A stretch of DNA of 64,000 bases from Miscanthus floridulus. Taxonomy: Eukaryota; Streptophyta; Magnoliopsida; Poales; Poaceae. The notes below the pieces were generated by a model that saw only the letters and a program-made list of their open reading frames with translations, was not told the origin of the DNA and searched no databases. The translations under genes and the position numbers were made by a program. This document shows positions 28,791 through 57,718 of this stretch, piece after piece (positions within the stretch are counted from its first letter, which is position 1; each line of letters opens with the position of its first letter). Location: the NCBI RefSeq assembly GCF_019320115.1, contig NC_089582.1, positions 126,071,259 to 126,135,258 on the forward strand. Direction: 5' to 3'.

Positions 28791-29867
28791 ATGGCTGGCG
28801 CGGGGGGTACGACGGCTGTGCAGCAGCCGGCGGCGGGGGCGCCGGCCGCTGGGGCCGCCAGGAGCGGGGTCGGGGCAGGCGCCGCGGGGGCGCCGGTCGC
28901 CGACCCGCGCGCCGAGGCGCTGCGGTGCCCGCGCTGCGACTCGGCCAACACCAAGTTCTGCTACTACAACAACTACTCGTTGTCGCAGCCGCGGCACTTC
29001 TGCAAGGCGTGCAAGCGCTACTGGACGCGCGGGGGCACGCTCCGCAACGTCCCCGTCGGCGGGGGCTGCCGCAAGAACAAGCGCTCCAGGAGCAGCGGCG
29101 GGGCCGGCGGGAGGAACGGGTCCTCCTCCTCCGCCTCCGCCGCTGCAGCCGCCGCCGCGGCTGCCGTCACGTCATCCTCGGCGGCGTCGACGCTGTCCCT
29201 CCCGCAGCCGCCGGGGTCCCTGCCGTCGCTGACCTCGGCGCTGGGCCTGCCCGGGGGCGCCTCGCTCGCGTCGTTCCTCCTCGGGACCGCCGGCTCTGGC
29301 GGTGACCACCTCGGTCTCTTCCAGGCGGCCATGCAGTCGGTGGTCTCCTCGGAGGCGACCGCCTACGAGATGCAGCAGCAGCAGCAGCAGCAGACGCAGG
29401 TGGACCACCTGCTAGGCCTCGGCTACGGAGGCGCCGGCGCTCAGATCCAGCTCAAGCCGTGGATGCAGGACGCCGCCGGGGCTGCTGGCGCGGGCGGGAT
29501 CATGGACAGCTTCTATGCGCCGCTGCTGTCCAGCTCCCTCGTGCCGGGGCTGGAGGAGCTGCACGTCAAGGCGGAGGTCGCCGGCGCCGGGGATCACCAG
29601 CAGAAGCTGGCGCCCGGAGACCAGCAGAGCGCCAGCTGGGAGCTGCCGACGCCGTCGTCGTCCAACGTCGACGCCAACGTCATCGCGTCCGACGCGCTCA
29701 TGGCCGCCGCGGCCGCGTCCATGAACCCCGTGGTTAGCTCCACCTCCACGGCGCCAACAATCGTCCCCTCCTCGTTCATGTACTGGGGCAACGGCGGCAT
29801 TGGCGGCGCTGCCGCGGCGTGGCCAGACCTCGCCAACTGCGGATCCTCCATTGCCACGCTCTTCTAG
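28791..29867 (+). CDS. Dof-type zinc-finger transcription factor
   Basis: This is a single open frame of 358 codons. Residues about 44-98 are a complete Dof domain: [19 protein letters not shown], then [18 protein letters not shown] and [13 protein letters not shown]. The zinc ligands are C46, C49, C71 and C74 with C-x2-C-x21-C-x2-C spacing. Dof proteins are plant-specific nuclear factors that bind AAAG cores. A basic stretch (KNKRSRS) after the finger can act as a nuclear signal. The N-terminus is Ala/Gly-rich, the middle has Ser and Ala runs and a Q7-T-Q stretch near residue 200, and the C-terminus ends [10 protein letters not shown]...[15 protein letters not shown]. The first ATG is used; it lies close after the leader, and no upstream in-frame ATG is seen. 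High GC3 and GC gradient fit a grass gene. The subgroup cannot be assigned from memory, so no symbol is given. Confidence 0.95.
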
Positions 29868-35858: not shown

Positions 35859-37765
35859 ATGTCACGCCATTGGATGTACAATGCCGATCGCCGCTCCCAA
35901 GACTTTATTGAGGGCTTGCACTATTTCTTAGGTGTGGCCGAGGCAAATAAGCGGGATGGTTTCATGTGCTGTCCATGTGCCCTATGTAAGAATTTAAAGG
36001 AATATTCAAGCTCAATGAGTCTTCATTCACATTTGCTTAAGTCAGGTTTCATGTCAAACTATATATGTTGGACTAAGCATGGAGAAAGCGGGGTCATGAT
36101 GGAAGAAGGTGAAGGAGAAGATTTAGACATTGATGACATTATTGCTCAGTATGATGCCTTTGATGATACTACAATGGTGGGAGATGAAGAAGAGGTAGCG
36201 GTAGAAGATGATCTCGGTGATGCTCTTGGCGATGCCATTCGTGATGCACAACAAGAATGGGAAAGTGAAAAAGAGAGGTAAGTTCGAGCGCATACTTGAG
36301 GATCATAGGAAGTTGCTATACCCGACGGCCGAAGAGGGGCAAAAAAAGCTGGGTACAACACTAGAATTGCTACAATGGAAGGCAAAGAATGGTATATCCG
36401 ACAAGGCATTTGGGAATTTATTGAACCTCATAAAGAAGATGCTTCCGAAGCCAAATGAATTGCCCACCACTACGTACGAAGCAAAAAAGGTTGTCTGCCC
36501 ATTGGGATTAAAAATCCAGAAGATACATGCATGTCCTAATGACTGCATCCTCTACCATGGCAATGAATACGAGAATTTGGATGAATGCCCGGTATGTAAA
36601 GCATCGCGGTATAAGATCAGGCGCGATGATCCTGGTGACGTCGAGGGTGAACAACGTCCTAGAAAGAAAATCCCTGCCAAGGTTATGTGGTATGCTCCTA
36701 TAATACCACGCTTAAAATGTTTGTTCAGAAATAAAGACCATGCAAAGTTGTTGCGGTGGTATAAAGAAGACCGTAAGGTAGACAATATGCTGAGACACCC
36801 AGCTGATGGGTCCCAGTGGAGAGCGATAGACAGGGAATTTCCAGAGTTTGCAAATGAGGCTAGAAACTTAAGGTTCGCCTTAAGTACAGATGGTATGAAT
36901 CCTTTTGGAGAGCAGAGCACTAGTCATAGCACTTGGCCAGTTACTCTATGTATCTACAACCTTCCTCCATGGTTATGTATGAAGCGGAAGTTCATTATGA
37001 TGCCAATCCTCATCCAAGGTCCGAGGCAACCTGGCAACGATATTGATGTCTATCTGAAGCCATTAGTTGAAGAACTTCTAGTTTTATGGAACAAACCAGG
37101 TGTACGTGTCTGGGATGAGTACAAACAAGAACACTTTGACCTACGAGCAATGTTGTTCGTAACAATCAATGATTGGCCTGCTTTAAGTAATCTTTCAGGT
37201 CAGACAAACAAAGGATATAATGCATGCACACATTGTTTTGATGACCTTGACAGTATATATTTGAAAAGATGTCGAAAGGTCGTGTACCTTGGCCATCGTC
37301 GATTCCTTCCGTTGAATCACCAAGTAAGAAAGAAAGGGAAGCATTTTAAAGGTAAGCCAGACCATCGGAAGAAGCCTCATAACCGAACCGGGGAAGATGT
37401 ACTCGCAATGGTCAAGGATGTGAAAGTAGTATTTAGAAAGGGACAAGGCAGTGAATCTGTTCCCAAAGATGCTAAGGGACACGCACCCATGTGGAAGAAG
37501 AAGTCCATCTTTTGGGAGCTACCCTATTGGCAAGTCCTAGAGGTCCTCCACGCAATCGACGTGATGCACCTAACAAAGAATCTTTGTGTGAACCTGTTAG
37601 GATTCATGGGTGTGTACGGGAAGCCAAAGGATTCACTTGAAGCACACCAGGACTTGCAGGGCATGAAAGAACGAGACAATCTTCATCCAGAGAAGACAGA
37701 TGATGGACGTCATTACTTAAGTCCTGCTAGCTACACGCTTAGCAAAGAAGAGAGGGACAACATGT
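35859..37765 (+). pseudogene. TNP2-type transposase, frameshifted and C-terminally truncated
   Basis: The start is taken at MSRHWMYNADRRSQDF, preceded by a TACAG acceptor. Residues 1-75 are a transposase-associated domain with CCPCALC. An acidic linker follows, and the frame breaks near 36275-36281. Reading resumes in another frame at GKFERILEDHRK and continues through HACPNDCILYHGNEYENLDE, MLRHPADGSQW, STDGMNPF (first Asp), TLCIYNLPPWLCMKRK, KGYNACTHCFDDLD, and HAIDVMHLTKNLCVNLLGF (second Asp). At YTLSKEERDNMF coding sequence changes abruptly to AT-rich repeat DNA. The rest of TNP2, including the HDCxxxMTQLLP block, DUF4218 and DUF4216 seen in CACTA-A, is missing. The enzyme is therefore not functional. 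Otherwise the core has few defects, which suggests fairly recent loss. Confidence 0.93.
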
Positions 37766-38472
37766 TTTGGTCAACTTTCCATTTGAGAAAGTTTGGACGG
37801 TTCAAATTTGTGATTTTTAAATTTCGACGCCTACAAACTAGTTTTCGGGACCCTAGATTGTCTCAAATTGAAAAGTTTTGAATACCGAGTTTGTTAAGCT
37901 CATCAATATATACAATCCTTATATAGGCCATTTTTTCATTTGAGAAAGCTTGAACAAAATGTAGTTCAAATTTCACAAGTGTGTGACATAGTTTTAGAAA
38001 GTATATATGAGATTCAAGAAGTTGTGACTAGTGTTTGATAAAAATTTCTCAAATGGGAAAATGATCTATGTAACAATTGTAGATCTTTCTGAGATGATCA
38101 AACTTGGTATTCAGAGTTTTTTCATCTGAGGTCATTTAGTGTCTCATTTGAGCAAGTTTGACCAAGTCAAATTTGGTCAAATAAAAAAACAACACTTTGA
38201 CTCTAGTATTATGAACTCTAAATGACTTCAAATTGAAAAGTTTTGAATACCAAGTTTGTTAAACTCAAAAAGATCTACAATTGTTGTTTTGGTCAACTTT
38301 CCATTTGAGAAAGTTTGGACGGTTCAAATTTGTGATTTTTAAATTTCGACGCCTACAAACTAGTTTTCGGGACCCTAGATTGTCTCAAATTGAAAAGTTT
38401 TGAATACCGAGTTTGTTAAGCTCATCAATATATACAATCCTTATATAGGCCATTTTTTCATTTGAGAAAGCT
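37764..38472. repeat. Direct repeat flanking the TNP2 truncation point
   Basis: A segment of about 187 bp (37764-37950, with TTTTGGTCAACTTTCCATTT and TTTCGACGCCTACAAACTAG) recurs at 38287-38472, offset 523 bp, almost unchanged. Related AAATTGAAAAGTTTTGAATA blocks lie between. Copy 1 begins exactly where transposase homology ends, so the truncation is tied to this repeat. Confidence 0.85.
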
Positions 38473-44725: not shown

Positions 44726-46188
44726 TGAAAGCATCCAGACCCCTAGTTGGGTTTCGGTGATTAATGACAATACGTGATTACTGTAACTAACGTGTGTTTT
44801 GCAGAGGCAATTAAGTTAGGTCACGGTAATGGAGATCGATTGAGCAATCATGGTGGTCATGCCCCTACGATGAAAATCGTTTCGGTTTTCAAATGATGGA
44901 CGATAAGGTTAAGGATGAACTAGTTCTAAGTGTCATTTGGTGTTGAAGAGACATTTAGAGTAGTTTAGGACTTTGTTTTTCCTTTGGCCGTACTATTAAG
45001 GGGGGTATGGACGGGTAACTTGACCTAGGTGAGTCTAGTGAGTTAGGTGTGGTGCACACTAGCTAAATCTAGCACTAGGTAGCTCCAAAATAGCCCTTAG
45101 ATCCATTGGAGCAAACTTCATTCACATATGATCGAGATTTGGAAGTGAATGGAGGGTCAAATATTGACCGGACGCTGGCTTCGGTGTGATCGGACGCTGG
45201 CGCAGAGTCCGGTCAGTTCATTTGATCAAGGTGAAGTCGTCTAGAAGTGACCGGACGCTGAGAGGCGAAGTGACCGGGCGCTGAGTCCCAGCGTCCAGTC
45301 GACTCCAGTAAGGTTCTAGAGAGGGAAAATCACGACTGGACGTTGTCCAGCGTCCGGTCACTACTTGATCACTGGAGTTCAGGGTGAACTGACCGAAGCG
45401 TCCGGTCAACATGACCGGAGCGTTCGGTCACCCCGCAGAGGCACATAACGGTTTGTTTTTAGCCTATGTTATAAATACTTCCTCCATTCGTGTGTGGGGG
45501 TACTTTTGCTCATTTCAACAGCTGAAAAACATCTTTGAGAGTGCTAAGAAGAGCAAGGTCCTAGTGAGGTGATTGAGATTTGAGTATCCCAAAGAGAGCT
45601 CTCATTAGTGAGATCAAGAGTAGCAAAGTGTGCATCCACCCTTCTCATTAGGCTTGTCGTGGTCAAGTGAGAGTTCGTGCTTGTTACTCTTGGTGATCGT
45701 CATCACCTAGATGGCTTAGTGGTGATTGTGAGCTTGGTGATCATCCGACGGAGCTTGTGGATGACCCAACTCAAGTTGTGAGCGGTTGTGGGTGATTCAC
45801 CACGACGGAGTGTCAAAGAATCAATCCGTAGAGAGCACTTGATCCTTGTGCGGATGAAGGGGGAGCTACACCCTTGCGCGGGTGCTCCAACGAGGACTAG
45901 TGGGGAGTGGTGACTCTCTGATATCTTGGCAAAACATCGCCATGTTTCTCCTTCTCTCTATACTTTGAGCATTTACTTTGAGCAATTCAATACTTGTCTT
46001 TACAGTCGTAGAATTACCATGCTAGAGTAGGATTGGAACTTAGGTTGTAAGTCTTTTTGTGCGGTAGAACATTAGAAACACTTTTTAGGCACAAGGGGTT
46101 AATTAGGCTAACCATATGATTTAATTATTGCAAAGAAATTTAGAATTAGCCCAATTCACCCCCCCTCTTGGACATCTTGATCCTTTCA
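44726..46188 (+). repeat. 5' LTR of the copia element
   Basis: 1463 bp with TGAAAG...CTTTCA ends. An array of GACCGGACGCTG/CAGCGTCCGGTC dyads occupies 45165-45430, just upstream of a TATA box TATAAATA (45470-45477). Transcription would start shortly after, giving R and U5. Compared with the 3' LTR there are 17 differences in the first 235 bp by my count, 16 of them transitions. Confidence 0.95.
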
Positions 46189-46190
46189 AT

Positions 46191-46202
46191 TGGAATCAGA
46201 GC
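46191..46202 (+). other. Primer-binding site (initiator Met tRNA type)
   Basis: TGGAATCAGAGC lies two bases after the 5' LTR and differs by one base from TGGTATCAGAGC, the usual PBS of plant copia elements, complementary to the 3' end of initiator methionine tRNA. Confidence 0.85.
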
Positions 46203-46241
46203 CTCGTGCTCACATATTTAGGCTTAACCGCCTAGAGAAAG

Positions 46242-48633
46242 ATGTCTCATGGGGATGGACCTCCTCCTATCTTTGAGGGGGATGATTTTCCATATTAGAA
46301 AATTCGCATGGAGGCGTAATTAGAAGCTCTAGATGTTGGAATACTTAGAGCCGCCTCACAAGGCTTCCCAAAACCTCGAGATGCTACACACCTATAAGGC
46401 GATGAGGTGACTTATGAGAAATGGAATGCAAAGGCTCGAAACACCATCTTTAGAGGCCTTTGCAAAGATATGTTCAACCGGGTGAGGAACCACAAAGACG
46501 CCCATGCACTATGGTTGGACGTTTGTGCGCTCCATGAGGGAATAAAGAGTGAGCGTGAGAAACGCTATCATCTTGTCATAAAAAAGCTTAACTCCTTTGA
46601 GATGCTTCCTAAAGAATGTGCTAATAAAATATATTCACGCTTGAATATTCTTATAGAGGAAGTCAATGGGCTTGTTCTCACTCAAATGCAACCATCTGAT
46701 GTTGTAAGAAAGATCTTGAGTGTCCTCCCCATTGACAAATATGGGCATATTATGACCGTGCTTCATCAAGGTGATCTTTCCACCACTACAACGACACAAA
46801 TCTTGGGAAAGATCAATGCTCATGAGATGTACATGCACATCACACCTCAAGATGGCTCATCCTCTACAAAGAAGAAAGAAAAGGACTTAGCATTCAAAGC
46901 TAGCCAAGAGAAGGGCAAAGCAAGACTTGAGTATGAGAGCTTAAGTGATGATGAAGTTGATGATGCAAGTCTTGCTCTCATGGTGAGAAAACCGCCAAGA
47001 TGCTAAAGTAGCTCAACAAGAGTGGCATCAAGTTCGATGGCAAGAAGAAGAAGTTCTTCACTAGCTCAATCTCCGAGATGGATTGCTACAATTGTGGAGA
47101 ACTTGGTCATCTAACACACTAATGCACCAAGCCCAAGAAAGACAAGTTCAAGAACAAGTACAAGGGCAAGAAAGATGACTCAAGTAATGAATAAGAAGAT
47201 GAGAAGAAGAAAAATAAGCCATACAAGAAGAGAGATGGCAAGAAGAAAGACTTTCATAAGAAGAAGAAGAGTGGAAAGGCATATATCGTCGGTGATTGGC
47301 TCACGGACATTGATTCATCTAGTGGCTCATCTGATGATGATAGTGACAACGAGAAGGTGACCACCATTGTTATTGACTCTTCGTCATCTTCACCGCCACC
47401 ACTGCCATCATCCTCTACACACCTATGCCTTATGGCCAAGGGTGAACGCAAGGTATCAAATGATGATGATAGTAGTGGTGATGAACATGCTAGTAATGAT
47501 GATAGCGATAGTGATGATGATGAATATGAATCACCTTCTTATGATGATCTTGCTAGATTGCTAAAACAATACACTACGATCATTATAAAGACTAGAGCTA
47601 AGAATGAAAAGTTAGAAGCTAAGAATGATTCACTTTTAGCAAAATGTGATATGGCGGAAAAGGCTAGTATTGAGCTTAGAGAAGCAAATGATGCTATATC
47701 ATCCAAACTCAAGGAGCTCAAATCTTCTAAGAAAGAGCTTAAAGATAAATATGATAAACTTGAGGGGATGCACAAAGAGCTCATCACTAGCCATAACAAG
47801 CTAAAAGAAGAATACACTACTCTTAAGATTAATCATGATAATCTTATTATTGCTCAAGAATTTCTATCCATGAGCCACATGATGCTACTAACAATGTTGT
47901 TAAGATTGATATAGCTACATCATGTGATGATTTAATCATTGAGAGCATTGAGCAAAGTTCTAGTAGCAAGGGCAAGCAAGTGGTTGAGGCCGATGATTAT
48001 GATGAGTTTGTCAAGCTCAAGAATGGTAATGAAAAGCTCAAGAAAGATCTTATAGAAATCAAAAGCCAAAACACTATTGTGCTAGAAACTCTTGATCATG
48101 ATGGTGATTTGATGCTTGAGAATGAGAAGCTAAAAGAAGAGAACAAGAAGCTCAAGGAAGAGAAAAACAATGATGCTCTCAAGAAAGAGAACAAGAAGCT
48201 CAAATTGGAGAAAGAGCATCTCAAGATTGGATTGAGCAAGTTCATAAGAGGCAAGCATCTACAAAGTGAGCTACTTATGAACACCATCATGAAGATGGAT
48301 AGAAGTGGCATTGGGTATTTGGCAAACCAAGAGAAGAAGGCTCAAGCTCAACAATAACACAAGTCAAAGCCAAAGCCAAAGAGATGCTTTGAGTGTGGAC
48401 AAGAATGTCACTTTGCCCATGAGTGTCAAACTCCACCACCACAACCCTTGTCCAAGTATGCGAGACCTTTTGCCTTCAATGCTCACTACATGCTTAGAAA
48501 GGATTCTAGTGGAAAGATGAAAGTCATGTTCTTAGGACCTCCAAACAAGAATAGGCCTAAGAAAATTTGGGTTGCAAAGTCACTTGTTGAGAAGGTGAAG
48601 GGCCCTCAACAAGTTTGGGTTTCTAAAGCTTGA
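46242..48633 (+). pseudogene. gag: gag of the copia element, interrupted
   Basis: The ATG at 46242 opens MSHGDGPPPIFEGDDF. Three early stops follow before a longer frame (46407-47006) with the typical copia gag region (ALWLDVCALHEG, YHLVIKKLNSFEMLPKE, VVRKILSVLP). A frameshift near 46990 moves the reading to a first CCHC knuckle (CYNCGELGHLTH, with a stop before its last Cys, about 47080-47125), an acidic and lysine-rich part, and long Lys/Glu/Leu coiled coils (47550-47860, 47980-48330). A second knuckle (CFECGQECHFAHEC, about 48391) precedes a C-terminal tail ending VWVSKA at 48633. Gag forms the particle and packages RNA. Two knuckles and extended coiled coil are consistent with SIRE-type gag. 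Not functional as read. Confidence 0.85.
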
Positions 48634-48647
48634 TCTCTTGTGTGTAG

Positions 48648-51600
48648 GTGAACTACAAGACCGGTGGAAGTCATTGGGTTATTGATAGTGGTTGCACACA
48701 ATATATGATCGGCGATCCTCGTATGTTCACCTCACTTGATGAAGAAGTAGATGGACAAGAAAGAATCACGTTTGGAGATAATTCAAAGGGCAAGGTTAAA
48801 GGATTGGGCAAAGTGGCAATATCAAATAATTATTCTATCTCAAATGTGCTATATGTTGCTTCATTGAGCTTCAACTTGCTATCCGTAGGACAATTGTTTG
48901 ATCTTGGCTTCCAATGCTTGTTCACCGAGAAGGAAGTTGTTGTATCTAAGAAGGATGATGATCAAGTGATATTCAAAGGATTTAGATACAACAACCTATA
49001 TCTAGTGGAATTTACCTCCGAAGATGTAAATTTGAAGACATGCCTATTCACCAAAATAACACTTGGGTGGCTATGGCATAGAAGACTTGTTCATATTGGG
49101 ATGAGCTCACTCAAGAAGCTAATGAAGAATGATTTGGTGAGAGGGTTGAAGGATGTGAAGTTTGAGAAGGACAAGCTTTGTAGTGCATGTCAAGCCAGTA
49201 AGCAAGTTGCAAATACTCATCCAACCAAAGCTTTCATGTCAATCACAAGAGTGCTAGAACTCCTTCATATGGATTTATTTGGACCAACAACATACAAGAG
49301 TTTGGTAGAGAATCTTTATTGTCTTGTGATTGTTGATGACTATTCAAGATACACATGGGTATTCTTCCTTCATGACAAATCTGAAATTGCATCTTGCTTC
49401 AAAAAGTTTGTCAAGAGAGCACAAAATGAATTTGAAGTGAAACTCAAGAAAATTAGAAGTGACAATGGGAAGGAATTTGACAACACAAACATAGAAGCCT
49501 ATCGTGATGAAGTTGGGATCAAGCATGAGGTTTCCACAACATATACTCCTCGACAAAATGGTGTAGTTGAGAGAAAGAACCAGACATTGATCACTCTTGC
49601 AAGAACAATGCTAGATGAGTACAACACCCCCGAAGCTCTATGGGCGGAAGCTATCAATACCGCATGCTATGCATCCAACTGCCTATTCCTTTAAAAGTTC
49701 CTTAGCAAGACACCTTATGAGTTGCTCAATGGGAAGAAGCTGAATGTCTCCTTCTTTAGGGTGTTTGGTTGTAAATGCTACATCTACAAGAAGCGGCAAC
49801 ACCTAGGGAAGTTTCAAAGATGTTGTGATATTGATTTTCTTGGTGGTTACTCATCAAAGTTCAAAGCATATAGAGTATTTAATCATGCCACCGGTTTGGT
49901 TAAAGAAACATATAATGTGGAATTTGATGAATCTAATGACTCCCAAGGAGCACATGAGAATCTTGATGATATAGGTGATGAACCATTGAGGGAGGCCATG
50001 AAGAACATTCTGGTTGGAGACATCAAGCCTAAAGATGATGAAGATAATGTATAAGTGATTAATCCACCTTCTTAAACAAGTGTGCCACAAGATGGTAATA
50101 AAGATGGAAGAGTAGAAAATGAAGACACTCATGTCTCCCATGATCAAATGGTGGTACAAGCACAAGATGTTGATGCTCCATAATCTCCTCCTCAAGTTGT
50201 CAATAGAAGAAATACACCTCTACTATAAGATCATCCATAAGATCTTATCATAGAAAGTCCATCAAAGGGTGTAATGACTCACTCACAAAAACTTACTTTA
50301 TTTATTGCTCATCACTCTTTTGTCTCTTGCTTTGAGACTACTAAGGTAGAAGAAGCTCTTCAAGATCTAGATTGGATAAATGCCATGCATGAAGAGTTGA
50401 ACAACTTCACCCACAATGAAGTTTGGACTCTTGAAGAGCGGCCAAAAGGTGTAAGAGTCATTGGAACAAAGTGGGTGTTCTGCCACAAGCAATATGATTA
50501 AGGTGTAGTTGTGAGGAATAAGGCAAGACTAGTTGCAAAGGGGTTCTTGCAAGTTGAAGGTTTGGATTTTGGAGAGACCTTTGCACCGGTTGTAAGACTA
50601 GAAGCCATCCGTATCCTCCTTGCATATGCATCACATCATGACATGAAACTATATCAAATAGATGTGAAAAGTGCATTCTTAAATAGCTTTATTAATGAAC
50701 TAGTCTATGTTGATCAACCTCCTGGGTTTGAAGACCCTAGATATCCAAATCATGTTTATAGGTTGTCCAAGGCATTATATGGGCTTAAGCAAGCCTCAAG
50801 AGCTTGGTATGAGCGCCTTTGGAACTTCCTCATTGAGAAGGGTTTCACCATTGAGAAGGTTGATACCATACTATTCACCATGAAGCTTGATGGGCACATC
50901 TTCATTTGTCAAGTGTATGTTGATGATATCATCTTTGGATCATCAAATGAAGATTCTTGCAAAGAGTTTGGTGGATTGATGTCGAAGGAGTTCGAGATGT
51001 CAATGATTGGAGAGCTTACATTCTTTCTTAGTTTTCAAGTCAAGCAAATGAGAGAAGGGATTTTCATCTCTCAAGAGAAATATACAAATGATCCTCTCAA
51101 GAGATTCAAGATGAATGAATGTAAGCCAATCAAGACACCAATGCCAACTAATGGATATTTCGACCTAGATAAGGGAGGTAACACGGTTGATCAAACTCTC
51201 TACCACTCTATGATTGGTAACTTGTTATATTTAACCGCATCTAGGCCCGACACCATGTTTAGTGTGTGTATGTGTGCTAGATTTCAAGTTAATCATAAGG
51301 AAACTCATTTGATTGCCATAAAAAGAATCCTTAGGTATCTTAAGCACACACCAAGCATTGGCCTTTGGTATCCCAAAGGAGCTATATTTGAATTAGTTGG
51401 CTATTCCAATTTGGATTATGCCTGTTGTAAAGTGGATAGAAAAAGCACATCCAGAGGATGCCATTTACTTGGTAGATCACTTGTGTCTTGGTCCTCTAAG
51501 AAACAAAATAGTGTGGCTTTGTCCACCGCCGAAGCAGAATACATTGCCGTGGGTGCTTGTTGTGTATAAATACTTTATATGAAGCAACCTTTGCTAGACT

Positions 51601-51920
51601 ATGGTGTAGTTCTAGAAAAGGTACCTCTTTTGTGTGACAATGAAAGTGCGGTAAAACTTGGAAATAATCTGGTTCAACACTCTCACACCAAGCACATAGA
51701 TATCCTGCATCACTTTCTTAGAGATCATGTTGCTAAAAATGATATATCATTAGAAGGTGTAAGGACCGAGGATCAATTGGTAGATATCTTCACTAAACCG
51801 CTAGATGAGGCGACTTTTTGTCGATTGCGGAATGAGCTCAATGTTCTTGATTTTAGTAACTTCACTAAAAATGAGCTTGTGTTGTCCCTTGCATTGCATT
51901 GTAATATACAACATGTTTAA
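48648..51920 (+). pseudogene. pol: pol of the copia element: protease, integrase, RT, RNase H with nonsense codons
   Basis: One phase is kept from 48648 to 51920, broken only by about eight stop codons (for example at 49692, 50052, 50499, 51567). Protease: HWVIDSGCTQYM with the DSG active site near 48684. Integrase zinc part: LWHRRLVHIGMSS...CSACQ. Catalytic triad: HMDLFGPT (about 49269), SDNGKEFDN (about 49461), NGVVERKNQ (about 49560). RT: KARLVAKGFLQVEG, DVKSAFLN, KALYGLKQASRAWYERL, and YVDD at 50915-50926. RNase H: TAEAEYIAVGA and HTKHIDILHHFLRD. The integrase-before-RT order defines copia. A region at 50052-50270 between integrase and RT is stop-rich. Confidence 0.92.
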
Positions 51921-52264
51921 TTTTTGGTAATACATATAGGGCTTGTCTAACATGGTTAAGATAACCGCTGTAAAGCGTGTGAAGAAGCTTAACCTTGGAT
52001 CAAACTTGACAAGCAACTAGATTTAATTTTAAGTATTTGCATTGCATATGCATGAATGTTGCTTTGTCGTTTATCTTCAAATTGCCCTCTTATTGCCTAT
52101 TTTCTTAAAAAGAATTATAGCCTAAGGCAAAATATTTTGAAAATTTTGAGGGTTTGAGAGAGGTCACTCATATCAGTCCCAACTGGTGTTTATTTAGATC
52201 TTATTGGAGTTGGGACTTAATTGGGAACAGGCAGCACGAAGGACTTCGAAGATTTGCTAGAAAA
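51921..52264. other. Spacer between pol and the internal dyad array
   Basis: Non-coding, AT-rich; no open frame of note. Part of the copia element. Confidence 0.5.
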
Positions 52265-52631
52265 AGAGTGACTGGATGCTGCACCAGACTCTGAAGTCCA
52301 GCGTTCGGTCAGTTCACAGGAGGTGAACTTGCTGTGAAGGAGTGACCGGACACTGAATAGTGTTCTCTCAACGTCCAGTCAGATGGCGATCCAACGTCCG
52401 GTCAAGCGAAGAAGACAAAGTCAGGATCGACCGGACTCTAGCTAGGTCCGGTCAGTGGTGATCGGACACGTCCGGTCGCGATTCCAAGGGATTTGGACCT
52501 CTCTGGAATCGATCGGACGTTGGGTGGCAGCGTCCGGTCGCTGCCACCAGAGCGTCCGGTCAGTAGAAAATGTGCGGGAATTGAACTCTCTTCTCTGTTT
52601 CCTATTCTACTTCGTGGGGGCCACTATAAAT
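52265..52631 (+). promoter_or_regulatory. Internal dyad array plus TATA box (possible promoter for ORF3)
   Basis: Repeats of CGTCCGGTCA and TGACCGGACRC in both orientations run from about 52265 to 52565, the same motif as in the LTR U3. They are followed by CTATAAAT (52624-52631). In the LTR the last motif lies about 50-60 bp upstream of the TATA box; here the spacing is similar (about 60 bp). Promoter function is inference. Confidence 0.5.
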
Positions 52632-53365
52632 CGCCATGCACGTGGTTGACCTATTCTATTCCGCATCGTCGCCATGCCTACCCGAGCCACCATGCTGTAG
52701 TGCTCGCCCTGCTCCCGTGCCACCATCGCGTCCCTGCGCCGCCGCTCCTATGCGCCACCGCGCTCGCACCCCACTGCGCCGCCGCTGCCCACGCCGTGCT
52801 CCTCGCACCACGCTCATGCCTCCCCTGCCCATAGCCATGCCGTCGTTGCCCGTGCCTCTGCACTGCGCCTTGCTAGCATCACCACCGCGCCATCCTCCAG
52901 CGCCGCCTCCGTGCACCAGCGCCGCCATCCGATCCACATCGAAGTCCCTGCCATCGCAAGCAACAAAGCTACTTTCCTACTCACCGTGCCTAATCCACTG
53001 CCCTACATTGCATTGCTCGGCCGCCGCACTTCGCTAGAACCCTAGCCTCGCATTGCCCCCCGGTGATTCCCCATTTGTCATTCCTCTTCTTTTTGGATCA
53101 TCGGTTCATCAGGTAGCAAGCCCTCGGTTCTAATTTCACACCTAATTGCTTGCTTTCTTAGGGTTTTGTATCTCTAGATGAATAATTAAAATTATTTGTA
53201 TACCCTATATTCTATCGTGCAGTGAGTCGGTGCCGTTGAGGTCCTATTTATAGTTGTCAGTCAACTCGGGGCCAAGCTCGCGAGTACGGATCAAGGCCAA
53301 GCCTCAGAAGTGATAGTTGGCAGTAGATCTTCATCAGCGGCAGTTGTTCTTTTTAGATCCATCAG
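52632..53365 (+). promoter_or_regulatory. C-rich leader and candidate intron before ORF3
   Basis: 52640-53045 is extremely C/G-rich with CGCC, CACC and GCCGC repeats and resembles a leader. A donor ATCAG|GTAGCA (53113) and an acceptor TTTTTAG| (exon from 53357) could remove a T-rich intron before the ATG at 53366. Open frames in the C-rich stretch look like composition effects. Confidence 0.4.
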
Positions 53366-55912
53366 ATGGCTTATGTCAAGAATATTGGAGGTGGTCCCGG
53401 TGATGAGGATCTAAGGCCCTCACCTTGCTAGTCTACAGATCCAAAAGGCAAGGCGACGAAGAAGCTTGCAACAAAGAAGCGGAAGTATCTAGATGCAGAT
53501 ACAGCTAGAGTAGCCGTAGTTGCAGCAGCAGCAGAGCATGTAGAGGCAGGAGATGCTAGGAGTGGAGTTCAGATCGTAGATCAGCTCTCTCCATCTACGA
53601 GAGCTGCAATAGAGCAGGTTGAGCGCCGTCATGGTGGTCCAGCTAGGACTGTCATGGTTGGAGGATGGTGTATAGCTATGGATGAGAGTCAGCCTCAGGG
53701 GGAGTCATAGTAGGAGCCACAACCAGTAGAGCAGACTCAGGAGGGAGAGCAGGTCGAGGAGACAGAGCAGGCACCTTAGCCACGGCTTCGCCGCTCTGGT
53801 CGCACCTGTGCTCCAGTCACTCTGAGGTCAGAGACACAGCAGAGGGGTTCACATCCACCACCCAGACCACAGGGTCCACCTCTAGTGACCCATCTAGATT
53901 TGAGGGCCGCCACGGCCAAGTAGGTGCAGCAGCTCAGATTTGTGGATTTTGAGCAGTGGTTTCCGCCAAGGCAAGATGAGCGTGCATCAGAGGGCTTCTA
54001 CACACCACTGCAGAAAGACTTCTATAATGCATATCTTAACAGTGGGGCACTATTTATGTCACAGAGGGTGTGCAACATTGAGTCCATAGTAGTAGCAGCA
54101 GCTGGAGAGCATATTCTCCCCTATCTAGTATATCTACTAGGGCTGATAGATTTACTTGGATAGATAGGATTATATATTCTATCTTGGGTCCATCAGTTCT
54201 ATGCTTTACTATGGATTAACCCGCAGCATAGATTTATACACTTTGCATTCAGAGGCAGAGATTACAGGCTGACAAGCACTAGGGTCAGGGAGATTCTTAG
54301 GCTTCAGGAGCAGCTCGTCAGGCTACATGAGGTTTGCTATGGACAGACAACACCTCCTAGACGTCCTCATGGCGGTTTGGTACCTCCTACAAATCTAGTC
54401 CGTCACTGCTTCAAAGAGCCTTTTGGTGAGGGGTCGAGCAGGACAAGTAATCTCACTCCTATAGCTAGAGTGTTGGATGCTATTATGAGGAGGACCCTGA
54501 TATATTCCGAGGATGGGGTATCGCGAGGGCTTGACTCACATTTAGTTATGGCTTCTAAACTCCTTGATGCAGCAGACTATGTTTGACATTTGAGACCTCT
54601 TTCTATCAAAGATGGAGGATACTATTGCTGAGGGGTTTAGAGGTCATCGTCAGTTGCCCTATGCTCACTGGATCATATTTCTTATTCGTAGGGCAGTTAC
54701 AGTGAGGCTACCTAACATGCTAGCTGAGTACAATGGTGCTACTACAGAGTTTCCTGCATATAACCTGACTCAGATGATCTGCCATAGTACACCGAGTGCA
54801 CCTAGCCAGCTGCGTCGTCGTCTGGAGGTGCCAGAGACTGCAACCCAGCAGGATGATACTATCAGGGGCATAGCAGCTATAGAGGAGGAGCAGCTTGATG
54901 CTTAGCTGGAGGGGATGGTCGAGAGCGACCCCAATGATAGCTCAGATGAGGACTACCGGGACATTCCTTAGATGCCTCCACGTCGACATGACCATGAGGT
55001 CGGTAGCTCTAGTTTAGCTCCACCTGCACCGCAGACAGACCCCGCTCTACTTGCCATACTTGAGCGGATGAGGTAGGATCAGGCTCGCCAGGCTCAGGAG
55101 ACCGCCGCTACTTTTGCACAGTTTTAGACTCAGTAGGATGAGTTTCAGCGGCAGCAGTAGGCCATACAGCAGCAGTAGCAAGCCATGCATCAGCAGCAGC
55201 TCCTCATGCAGCAGCAGCTACTTAGGTTTATGCAGCATGTTGTGATAACTATTGGGGTCCCACCGCCATAGCCTTCACCCCAGTTTGGTCAGACTGCCAC
55301 CACTTCTATGACTCCTGCGTTATAGCATAGTGCGCTTCAGAGTTAGGGACAGCCACCAGCATAGTTTGCTTCACCTATAGAGCAGGTGTCCTAGTGGTTT
55401 GCCTCGCCAGTGTTAGCCCCATAGTTCACACCTCTTCAGACGGGCTTCACACCGGCTCAGACTTCCTCACTGATAGTGCTAGATACCTTAGTCTCCAGGA
55501 GTCTTGGAGAGACTTTTAGTGAGTTGATAGGGCAGCCTACTCCACCATATTTGCATGTCTTAGGTCCTTCTATAGTTGTACCTATTACCGGGACTACAGA
55601 GACGCTCCCTTCGTCAGTTGCATCATCAAAGCAGGCAGCACCAGTTATTGATCCGACCTAGACCGCTTTAGCATCACTTCAAGCTACAGAGGGTTAGACT
55701 GCTCAAAGCTCTAGTTCAGATGATGATGGCACATAGTTCCAGCTCGCTCCTCGTACCTCAATGCCTGACTCGTTCGCTGTAGCCCCACTGACCGACCCTT
55801 AGGTTTTGGTGTTTGACGCTAAAGGGGGAGAGGGATCGAGTATGTTAGTCTTAGGGGGAGCGACATATCTAGGGGATCTTAGTTTATCTATTAGATTTGG
55901 TTTTTATGTGTG
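53366..55912 (+). pseudogene. Envelope-like third ORF of the copia element, interrupted
   Basis: The ATG at 53366 opens MAYVKNIGGGPGDEDLRPSP. One frame is kept to about 54584, then a frameshift, then another frame to about 55912 (ending VFDAKGGEGSS...IRFGFYV). A basic N-terminal stretch (KKLATKKRKY) is followed by Pro/Gln/Glu-rich sequence. A conserved-looking core follows (FVDFEQWFPPRQDERASEGF, FRGRDYRLTSTRVREILRL, LTPIARVLDAIMRRTLIYSE) resembling the domain called putative plant transposon protein. A Gln-rich tail completes it. Hydrophobic stretches occur near 54110-54230. More than a dozen TAG codons replace likely CAG, especially in the Gln-rich tail (55060-55400). SIRE-type elements carry env-like genes here; a true envelope role is unproven. 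Confidence 0.7.
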
Positions 55913-56264
55913 ATACACTATTATGCATTCGTGTGTCTACTTTTATGCATCAAACTATATTTATGTGATGTGATAGTGATATCTACGTGATCGTGATATA
56001 TGACATGTGTGCTCTCTACTTTGAATTATTTATATGTCATATCACTTGTGCTATGCTCATTTGCTTTGCTTCCGCATTTTACTCCGATGCAAATGAGCTT
56101 TATTACTTGTACTCATGCTCATATCTTTTGAGTACATTATGTTGGCTTAGGTCATATAAGCTTGCCTAACTCTTTTGTTCTTATTGTCAAAAGCTTATAT
56201 GAACCAAGCATGTTAAAAACCTCAACTCTTTCATATATTCGAGGTAGTATTGTCATCAATCACC

Positions 56265-56277
56265 AAAAAGGGGGAGA
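56265..56277 (+). other. Polypurine tract before the 3' LTR
   Basis: A-and-G tract AAAAAGGGGGAGA ending one base before the 3' LTR start. Related tracts AAAGGGGGAGAGG (55821-55833) and TAGGGGGAG (about 55852-55860) lie further upstream. Confidence 0.85.
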
Positions 56278-56278
56278 T

Positions 56279-57718
56279 TGAAAGCATCTAGGCCCCTAGT
56301 TGGGCTTCGGTGATTAATGACAATACGTGATTACTATGACTAACGTGCGTTTTGCAGAGGCAATTAAGTTAGATCATGGTAATGGAGATCGATTGGGCAA
56401 TCATGGTGGTCATGCCCCTACGATGAAAATCATTTCGGTTTTCAAAGGATGGACAACAAGGTTAAGAATGGACTAGTTCTAAGTGTCGTTTGGTGTTGAA
56501 GAGACACTTAGAGTAGTTTAGGACTTTGTTTTTCCTTTGGTCATACTATTAAGGGGGTATGGACGGATAGCTTAACCTAGGTGAGTCTAGTGAGTTAGGT
56601 GTGGTGCACACTTGCTAAATCTAGCACTAGATAGCTCCAAAATAGCCCTTAGATCCATTGGAGCAAACTTCATTCACGTATGATCGAGATTTGGAAGTGA
56701 ATGGAGGGTCAAATACTGACTGGACGCTGGCTTTGGTATGACCGGACGCTGGCGTAGAGTCCGGACAGTTCATTTGATCAAGGTGAAGTCGTCTAGAAGT
56801 GACCGGACGCTGAGAGGTGAAGTGACCGGACGCTAGGGGGGTCGACTCCAGTAAGGTTCCAGAGAGGAAAAATCATGACCGGACCGGTCATTACTTGATC
56901 ACTGGAGTTCGGGGTGAACTGACTGGAGCATCCGGTCAACATGACCGGAGTGTCCGGTCACCCCGCAGAGGCACATAACGTTTCGTTTTTCAGCCTATGT
57001 TATAAATACTTTCTCCATTCATGTGGGGGTACTTTTGCTCATTTTAACAGCTGACAAAAACCTTTGAGAGTGTCAAGAAGAGCAAGGTCCTAGTGAGGTG
57101 ATTGAGATTTGAGAATTCCAAAGAGAGCCCTCATTAGTGAGATCAAGAGTATCACAGTGTGCATCCACACTTCTCATTAGGCTTGTTGTGGTCAAGTGAG
57201 AGTTCGTGCTTGTTACTCTTGGTGATCACCATCACCTAGATGGCTTGGTGGTGATTGTGAGCTTGGTGATCATCCGACGGAGCTTGTGGATGATCCAACT
57301 CAAGTTGTGAGCGGTTGTGGGTGATTCACCGTGACGGAGTGTCCAAGAATCAACCCGTAGAGAGCACTTGATCTTTACGCGGATCAAGGAGGAGCTACAC
57401 CCTTGCGCGGGTGCTCCAACGAGGACTAGTGGGGAGTGGCGACTCTTCGATACATCGGCAAAACATCGCCGCGTTCCTCCTTCTCTCTTTACTTTGAGCA
57501 TTTACTTTGAGCAATTCAATACTTGTCTTTACATTTATAGAATTGTCATGCTAGAGTAGGATTGAAATTTAAGTTGCAAGTCTTTTTGTGCGGTAGAACA
57601 TTAGAAACGCTTTCTAGGCACAAGGGGTTAATTGGGCTAACCATAGGATTTAATTATTGCAAAGAAATTTAGAATTAGCCCAATTCAAACCCCCCTCTTG
57701 GGCATCTTGATCCTTTCA
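56279..57718 (+). repeat. 3' LTR of the copia element
   Basis: 1440 bp, TGAAAG...CTTTCA, collinear with the 5' LTR. The dyad array (about 56715-56965) has lost about one unit relative to the 5' copy. TATAAATA at 57001-57008. Divergence from the 5' LTR is about 7% over the first 235 bp by manual count, so the insertion is not recent. Confidence 0.95.

What the first reader, a model, noticed from the sequence alone, without database searches (positions are those of the whole stretch)
52265..53366. Possible second, internal promoter in a copia element that reuses the LTR enhancer motif upstream of the envelope-like ORF
The LTR U3 has a dense array of GACCGGACGC/GCGTCCGGTC dyads (45165-45430) ending shortly before a TATA box (45470). 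The same motif array recurs only once inside the element, at 52265-52565, and is again followed about 60 bp later by CTATAAAT (52624), then a C-rich leader, a candidate intron and the ATG of ORF3 (53366). Env-like genes of plant copia elements lie downstream of pol with no accepted expression mechanism. A private internal promoter sharing the LTR's trans-acting factor would be an explanation.
Basis: partly seen in the sequence, partly recalled or inferred. Interest (0 to 1): 0.75.

Follow-up and report, generated by a model that had tools for sequence, protein, structure and literature searches.

The report
Sirevirus retrotransposon with probable internal promoter
A decayed plant jumping element carries, in front of its extra "envelope-like" gene, the same array of short DNA motifs that sits in front of its main promoter, plus a conserved intron, which fits a separate promoter for that gene; the shared array was already described in 2010 for this group of elements, and the promoter itself remains unproven.

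Summary
GACCGGACG-type half-sites (one mismatch allowed) occur 10 times in the 5' U3, 10 times at 52302-52561, 7 times in the 3' U3 and nowhere else in the element; CTATAAAT follows about 62 bp on. The element is an env-containing Sirevirus. Paired arrays in LTR and upstream of ENV were published by Bousios et al. 2010 (PMC2829016), who already used them to support an internal env promoter. New here, from copies in the window's own genome: the array is in 29 of 29 close copies and in 6 of 6 more divergent copies not chosen by it; motif cores show far fewer transversions than spacer or pol; and a 110-bp GT-AG intron before the ORF3 ATG is kept in 53 of 53 copies, which suggests splicing on RNAs that are not reverse-transcribed. 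Against: 0 of 5 readable divergent copies has a canonical TATA, leaders carry a median of 6 upstream ATGs, ORF3 is broken in the window and in 20 of 20 copies checked, and no transcript data were available. ORF3 belongs to PF20167 and shows no clear envelope features in simple checks.

The parts
44726..46188 (+). 5' LTR (TG...CA)
   Evidence: aligned to 3' LTR, 91.3%; borders read
45165..45430 (.). U3 array of TGACCGGACGCT half-sites (11 at <=3 mismatches)
45470..45477 (+). LTR TATA box TATAAATA
46157..46164 (+). polyC-rich stretch at LTR 3' end (resembles the Sirevirus integrase signal)
   Evidence: described in PMC2829016
46195..46203 (+). PBS region (ATCAGAGCC)
   Evidence: identity as PBS recalled
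46470..47006 (+). gag piece (PF14223)
48705..49694 (+). pol piece: gag_pre-integrase, integrase core
50643..51569 (+). pol piece: copia reverse transcriptase (PF07727)
51570..51920 (+). pol C-terminal piece, last coding stretch before the linker (no Pfam match of its own)
52265..52565 (.). internal motif array (12 half-sites at <=3 mismatches, mostly + then - dyads)
   Evidence: in 29 of 29 close and 6 of 6 more divergent copies examined
52624..52631 (+). candidate TATA box CTATAAAT, about 62 bp after the last half-site
   Evidence: state in copies
52640..53112 (+). C-rich leader (inferred exon 1), CpG-rich, with upstream ATGs
53113..53222 (+). candidate 5'-UTR intron, CAG|GTAGCA ... TCGTGCAG|
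   Evidence: retained in 53 of 53 copies examined
53223..53365 (+). inferred exon 2 of the leader
53366..55820 (+). ORF3, broken copy of a PF20167 'env-like' gene (many TAG stops, one frame change near 54590)
56269..56276 (+). terminal PPT AGGGGGAG starting 10 bp before the 3' LTR (further copies at 53697, 55823 and 55853)
56279..57718 (+). 3' LTR
56717..56960 (.). 3' U3 motif array (9 half-sites at <=3 mismatches)
57001..57008 (+). TATA box of the 3' LTR

Best explanation
An env-containing Sirevirus (Ty1/copia, SIRE/Maximus lineage) in which the block 52265-53365 is a second, internal promoter and 5'-UTR. Shown: a shared motif array, few transversions in its core, a retained intron with conserved splice sites, an ATG, and a PF20167 gene behind it. 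Inferred: a host or element-encoded nuclear factor binds the dyads both in U3 and in the internal block; RNA polymerase II starts near 52650 or further down in the leader; the 110-nt intron is removed; and ORF3 is made from this shorter mRNA, which lacks R and PBS and so cannot be reverse-transcribed, leaving the intron in new copies. In this particular copy ORF3 is dead.
For: Array in the same two places, absent elsewhere in the element. Array in 29 of 29 close copies (chosen with the array as query, so biased) and in 6 of 6 upstream pieces of copies found through PF20167 instead (6 of 30 such loci examined). Purine/pyrimidine changes among the 29 copies: motif core 0.0041 per cell, spacer 0.0309, pol 0.0202; 0 of 300 circular shifts of the mask as low. 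In both arrays departures from the core are almost all C>T or G>A (U3 read in 11 of 20 copies, sites picked at <=3 mismatches). Splice sites in 24 more divergent copies: GT 47 of 48, AG 46 of 47, ATG 71 of 72 against 0.83 identity inside the intron; intron absent in 0 of 53 copies. Intron diverges like pol at A/T sites (0.067 both) while leader (0.233), spacer (0.158) and ORF3 (0.145) diverge more. A distantly related plant element, L003 (RT 58% identical), has four GGGTCGACCC palindromes, a TTAAAAG, a pyrimidine-rich ATG-free leader and an unbroken PF20167 ORF. Published: in nine ENV Sireviruses LTR and pre-ENV boxes share one family-specific motif.
Against: No transcript, CAGE or methylation data could be consulted. 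Counting all substitutions, the motif core is not more conserved than the spacer (0.141 against 0.126) and has more shared polymorphism at non-CpG columns (0.31 against 0.15). Canonical TATA is lacking in 6 of 29 close copies (5 CATAAAT, 1 TTTAAAT) and in 5 of 5 readable divergent ones. Median 6 upstream ATGs in the predicted spliced leader of 29 loci, window included. ORF3 is broken in all 20 copies checked. In the 29 close copies AG and ATG are not better kept than the intron interior (P 0.16 and 0.18). P values treat related copies as independent. Retained introns could also mean that splicing of genomic RNA is weak. Six ENV Sireviruses of Bousios et al. lack such boxes.
Confidence: 0.55

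Rival explanations
1. ORF3 is expressed by retrovirus-like splicing of the LTR-initiated RNA, from a donor in the 5' leader to an acceptor just before ORF3 (for example TTTTTAGATCCATCAG|ATGG at 53365); the internal array has no promoter role.
For: A polypyrimidine-AG lies directly before the ATG, and its A and G are kept in 24/24 and 22/23 more divergent copies. Splicing is reported for Bagy2, and acceptors were predicted for Bagy2 and Athila (as cited in PMC7264820 and PMC2829016).
Against: Does not explain an array confined to U3 and the pre-ORF3 block, nor the separate conserved 110-bp intron upstream. In L001 and L003 no AG lies directly before the ATG (read). No 5' donor was searched for.
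Confidence: 0.2
2. The arrays are hairpin-forming palindromes whose main present role is host recognition (siRNA source) or RNA structure, with cis-regulation only in the LTR.
For: Both arrays fold far better than shuffles (z -6.8 and -7.5). Maize Sirevirus LTR palindromes are siRNA hotspots (as described in PMC10760457 and PMC5311732, passages).
Against: A hairpin needs pairing, not one fixed heptamer; pooled over the half-sites the core keeps its letters against transversions. By eye the two arms of a dyad carry different departures; no covariation test was run. In the published set linker boxes sit before ENV (77 of 79) and are absent in the 4 RM elements without ENV.
Confidence: 0.12
3. 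The internal array is a relic: copied long ago and now without function, kept only by recent burst amplification.
For: ORF3 is dead in the window and in 20 of 20 copies; leader and ORF3 diverge fast.
Against: Core purine/pyrimidine change is 7- to 8-fold below the adjacent spacer, and arrays recur in other Sireviruses with other motifs (L003).
Confidence: 0.13

Closest known systems
Sirevirus RM boxes upstream of ENV (Bousios et al. 2010, PMC2829016)
   Same: CGG-CCG palindromic boxes in upper half of LTR and again just before ENV, CpG-rich, TATA shortly after the LTR boxes; internal promoter favoured
   Different: They could not conclusively identify an internal promoter; here a TATA-like element, a conserved 5'-UTR intron and a transversion-based test of constraint are added
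Foamy virus internal promoter (PMC3185757, passages)
   Same: second promoter inside a retroelement driving downstream extra genes, with a factor acting on both promoters
   Different: there the factor (Tas) is encoded by the internal transcript and known; here the factor is unknown. No relation by descent is claimed
Maize Grande gene23 (Gomez-Orte et al. 2013, not read; as cited in PMC7264820)
   Same: extra gene between pol and 3' LTR of a plant element, transcribed from its own promoter
   Different: antisense gene in a Ty3/gypsy element (lineage recalled); no shared motif array mentioned in the passages seen
VANDAL21 VANC anti-silencing system (PMC5735166, passages)
   Same: element-specific short motif arrays in non-coding parts, plus an extra gene
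   Different: DNA transposon; VANC binding to its motif is shown; no binding by a PF20167 protein is known to me

Membership tests
Sirevirus (Ty1/copia) | copia order, integrase before RT, with RVT_2 | tested here: met
Sirevirus (Ty1/copia) | PPT AGGGGGAG starting 10 bp before 3' LTR, further PPTs clustered in the linker | tested here: met
   PPT 56269, LTR 56279; others at 53697, 55823 and 55853
Sirevirus (Ty1/copia) | RM boxes with CGG-CCG core in upper half of LTR (13 of 21 elements in PMC2829016) | tested here: met
   definition
Sirevirus (Ty1/copia) | RM boxes upstream of ENV in RM-bearing members with ENV | tested here: met
Sirevirus (Ty1/copia) | conserved TATA a short way after the LTR boxes | tested here: met
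   45470, about 40 bp after the last half-site
Sirevirus (Ty1/copia) | polyC-rich integrase signal at LTR end | tested here: inconclusive
   CACCCCCC at 46157; exact signal not compared
Sirevirus (Ty1/copia) | RT falls in the Sirevirus clade of a tree | not tested
   only similarity searches were run
Retroviral-type envelope gene | signal peptide and transmembrane helix | tested here: inconclusive
   L003 protein and 19 relatives by simple hydropathy: N-termini mostly basic; maximum 19-residue mean 1.16-1.68, 2 of 20 above 1.6. No dedicated predictor was run; leans to not met
Retroviral-type envelope gene | fold of a known viral envelope | tested here: inconclusive
   model of L003 ORF, pLDDT 73; no match with E<=0.001 in PDB or BFVD
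Functional Pol II internal promoter | mapped transcription start | not testable with these tools
   no transcript data held
Functional Pol II internal promoter | conserved core promoter element | tested here: inconclusive
   TATAAAT 21, TATATAT 2 of 29 close copies; 0 of 5 readable divergent copies

The most novel reading that the evidence does not exclude
ORF3 is not an envelope but a nuclear DNA-binding regulator (transactivator or anti-silencing factor) that recognises its own family's RM dyads both in the LTR and in its own internal promoter, so that Sireviruses carry a positive feedback circuit like foamy virus Tas or a sequence-specific anti-silencing system like VANC, with motif and protein diverging together between families.
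Probability: 0.13. Interest if true: 0.85.

Novelty: new member of a known kind. Interest (0 to 1): 0.42.

Why it matters
How the extra gene of ENV-containing plant copia elements is expressed, and what it does, has been open since at least 2002 (as told in PMC2829016). The conserved intron, kept in every copy examined, gives a simple, checkable signature (a spliced ORF3 leader) that separates an internal promoter from splicing of the genomic RNA, and long-read data from one grass could settle it. If the same factor drives LTR and ORF3, the extra gene is tied to element activity rather than to an infectious phase.

Tried and rejected
Plain identity of motif core against spacer as a sign of constraint: it does not show any. 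I take this to be because cytosines in the core decay by transitions, and used transversions instead. In one search the 3' U3 core showed 12 A/T transversion cells; 12 copies were used, so these may be one change private to the window (not checked further), and the U3 core was otherwise 0 of 508 at C/G sites (P 0.05-0.09 against its surroundings). Simple duplication of U3 into the linker: no collinear homology beyond short motif-bearing matches. CpG island as a sign of lasting hypomethylation: not supported, because after masking the motifs the array has CpG o/e 0.28 and CpG columns of the core vary as much as those of pol (0.122 both); only the leader is CpG-rich in itself (1.09). Conservation between the two LTRs of this copy: uninformative (motif 12 of 116 differ, array gaps 10 of 128, other 81 of 1196). 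Stop-codon suppression from pol, as cited for SIRE1 in PMC2829016: unlikely here, since pol and ORF3 are 1.4 kb apart with stops between. Viral contigs: 4 scans, no relative. Plasmids: 3 distant RT records at 32-34% identity. Rfam: 0 matches. Structure of the ORF3 family: no fold match. L002 shows no dyad excess (2 against 4.3 in shuffles) and ends before any long ORF. L001 has 17 short dyads against a shuffle mean of 4.9 and maximum 17, and its ORF is only 16 codons at the contig end, so it counts little; L003 has 6 against a mean of 1.0 and maximum 4. Failed analyses: misread minus-strand loci (redone); one search read the TATA place through gapped alignments (redone on raw sequence).
Full report
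What is there. The window holds one nearly complete Sirevirus-type copia element, 44726-57718. Its LTRs are 91.3% identical over the blastn alignment, with 103 differences in 1440 aligned sites, about 2.7 million years at a recalled grass rate of 1.3e-8. It has copia pol pieces in copia order, the PPT AGGGGGAG starting 10 bp before the 3' LTR with further copies at 53697, 55823 and 55853, and a long linker with an extra gene, ORF3. Shuffling each array alone gives on average 0.2 hits.

Known in print. I read the abstract, sections 5 and 9 and passages of Bousios et al. 2010 (PMC2829016). They describe, for 13 of 21 Sireviruses, repeated palindromic motifs in the LTR, all but one with a CGG-CCG core. 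In the nine of these that carry ENV there are further copies in the linker, 77 of 79 of them before ENV; the four without ENV have none in the linker. Six ENV elements lack such boxes but have CpG islands at the same place. They note a TATA box after the LTR boxes and say that all this supports the internal promoter hypothesis of Peterson-Burch and Voytas 2002 (not read), though they could not conclusively identify a promoter. Searches of the held open-access library (and 58, which listed 20 of 22) showed no paper that I recognised as mapping such a start; the library lacks most subscription journals.

Related copies. The window lies in an unnamed 2.68-Gb genome whose contigs 1-19 are the large ones among those I met (a recalled match would be Miscanthus). 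A search with 52265-52700 found 4977 candidates, of which 40 were scored; I examined 29 of the 39 other long matches. All 29 carry 6 to 11 motifs in the block. Because the array was the query, I also took copies found through Pfam PF20167 (150 matches scored of 3552 candidates, 30 loci fetched). Upstream pieces of 6 of these 30 were fetched, and all 6 contain the array, 9 to 13 motifs; the other 24 were not examined that far upstream. A distant relative is L003 (RT 58% identical), a probable plant contaminant in a rumen MAG: four GGGTCGACCC palindromes between pol and an unbroken 435-codon PF20167 ORF (81 bits against a cut-off of 45), with a TTAAAAG and an ATG-free pyrimidine-rich leader, 129 bp from that string to the ATG. 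L001 shows a 25-bp-period dyad array, TATAAATA and a possible ORF start, but the ORF is too short to name and its dyad number only equals the shuffle maximum. The third contaminant, L002, shows no dyad excess.

Is the motif under constraint? By plain divergence, no: core 0.141, spacer 0.126, pol 0.075, and the core has more shared polymorphism at non-CpG columns. But core departures in both the internal array and U3 are nearly all C>T or G>A, as methylated cytosines decay. Counting only purine/pyrimidine changes among the 29 copies, with the window left out, the core has 0.0041 per cell against 0.0309 in spacer and 0.0202 in pol. Polymorphic columns are 0.107 against 0.304 and 0.374 (Fisher P 0.0005 and 2e-7). 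None of 300 circular shifts of the mask within the array is as low. Counts relative to the window and split by base class agreed for the internal array; for the 3' U3 (12 of 20 copies) they were only suggestive. Copies are related, so the P values are rough. Part of all change is post-insertion: transversions between this element's own LTRs are 19 in 1440, about 0.013 per pair or 0.007 per copy. The core sits at or below that floor, so I infer hardly any change before insertion; that it is slightly below is unexplained and may be sampling.

TATA, leader, intron. The TATA position reads TATAAAT in 21, TATATAT in 2, CATAAAT in 5 and TTTAAAT in 1 of 29 copies. Of the 23 with a TATAWAW box the distance from the last motif is 62-64 bp in 19 and 85-86 bp in 4. 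In 5 readable divergent copies the place is AT-rich but without a canonical TATA box; the sixth piece ended too early. So the array is general in what I saw and this exact TATA is not. The C-rich leader evolves fastest, and the predicted spliced leader of 29 loci has a median of 6 upstream ATGs, some of which may be decay. The candidate intron 53113-53222 behaves differently: A/T-site divergence 0.067, equal to pol, against 0.233 for the leader. Among 24 more divergent copies (of 30 PF20167 loci, 5 had no homology to this stretch, and one near-duplicate, L065, was dropped) GT is kept at 47 of 48 sites, AG at 46 of 47 and the ATG at 71 of 72, against 0.83 identity inside the intron. In the 29 close copies GT is 56 of 56 (P 0.01), but AG and ATG are not better than background (P 0.16 and 0.18). 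No copy of 53 has lost the intron. If the LTR-started genomic RNA were spliced here with any efficiency, intron-less copies should accumulate through reverse transcription. Their absence in this sample fits splicing on a shorter RNA that cannot be reverse-transcribed. The genome-wide search for intron-less copies did not complete.

The gene. One open piece of ORF3 matches PF20167 below its cut-off (24.3 of 45 bits); three other pieces match nothing. Its relatives number 347 at E <= 0.001, and many of the 120 listed carry PF20167. The L003 protein and 19 relatives have mostly basic N-termini and no clear signal peptide; by simple hydropathy 2 of 20 just pass 1.6 (a recalled cut-off) for a membrane helix. 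The predicted fold (pLDDT 73, with a long helix at 329-382) has no match with E <= 0.001 among solved structures or viral models. PF20167 also occurs in a sunflower Athila element, where a nuclear localisation signal was predicted (PMC11728184, passages). "Envelope" is thus a doubtful name. In the window ORF3 is broken, and each of 20 other copies examined has 5 or more stops in the window's frame, one of which may be the natural end. Some PF20167 matches in the genome have no stop inside the domain.

Mechanism and judgement. I put 0.55 on an internal promoter region that shares a factor with the LTR and gives a spliced ORF3 mRNA, 0.2 on splicing of the LTR RNA, 0.12 on palindromes acting mainly as RNA or siRNA structures (fold z -6.8 and -7.5; maize literature seen as passages), and 0.13 on a relic. 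It would work like the foamy virus internal promoter (passages) and like Grande gene23 (as cited in PMC7264820), without being related to either. The boldest reading is that ORF3 itself is the shared factor, like Tas or like VANC (passages of PMC5735166). Nothing here shows binding, and I found no paper joining Sirevirus and anti-silencing in that sense (three listings; two checked by passages, the third not opened). Passages of PMC12844716 report reduced CG methylation over the middle of sunflower SIRE elements, which is compatible with, but no test of, that reading.

Noticed in passing
53366-55820 and the matching stretches of L034-L053: Stops in ORF3 are almost all TAG: 23 of 23 in the window and 372 of 402 in 20 other copies. 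The window's ORF3 keeps 57 CAG but only 5 CAA codons, so decay looks strand-asymmetric rather than symmetric CHG deamination. Not explained.
   Followed up: partly
L001, L002, L003: Probable plant copia elements sit as contaminant contigs in bacterial records: Labilibacter sediminis CG51 scaffolds 42 and 46 and a rumen Eubacterium MAG.
   Followed up: partly
52177-52184 and 52208-52215: Inverted repeat TCCCAACT / AGTTGGGA in the linker about 50 bp before the array; read by eye.
   Followed up: no
52640-53112: Leader is CpG-rich without any motif (45 CpG, o/e 1.09 over 52633-53112) while gag-pol is at 0.30; it may be a captured host 5' UTR.
   Followed up: no
28791-29867: 358-codon ORF that looks like a Dof zinc-finger transcription factor (recognised by eye).
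   Followed up: no
36208-37881: 557-codon ORF resembling a CACTA-type (TNP2-like) transposase (recognised by eye).
   Followed up: no
L084, L086-L089: More divergent copies keep the array but have TTATAA, CTTAA or TATTTA-like strings where the window has CTATAAAT.
   Followed up: partly
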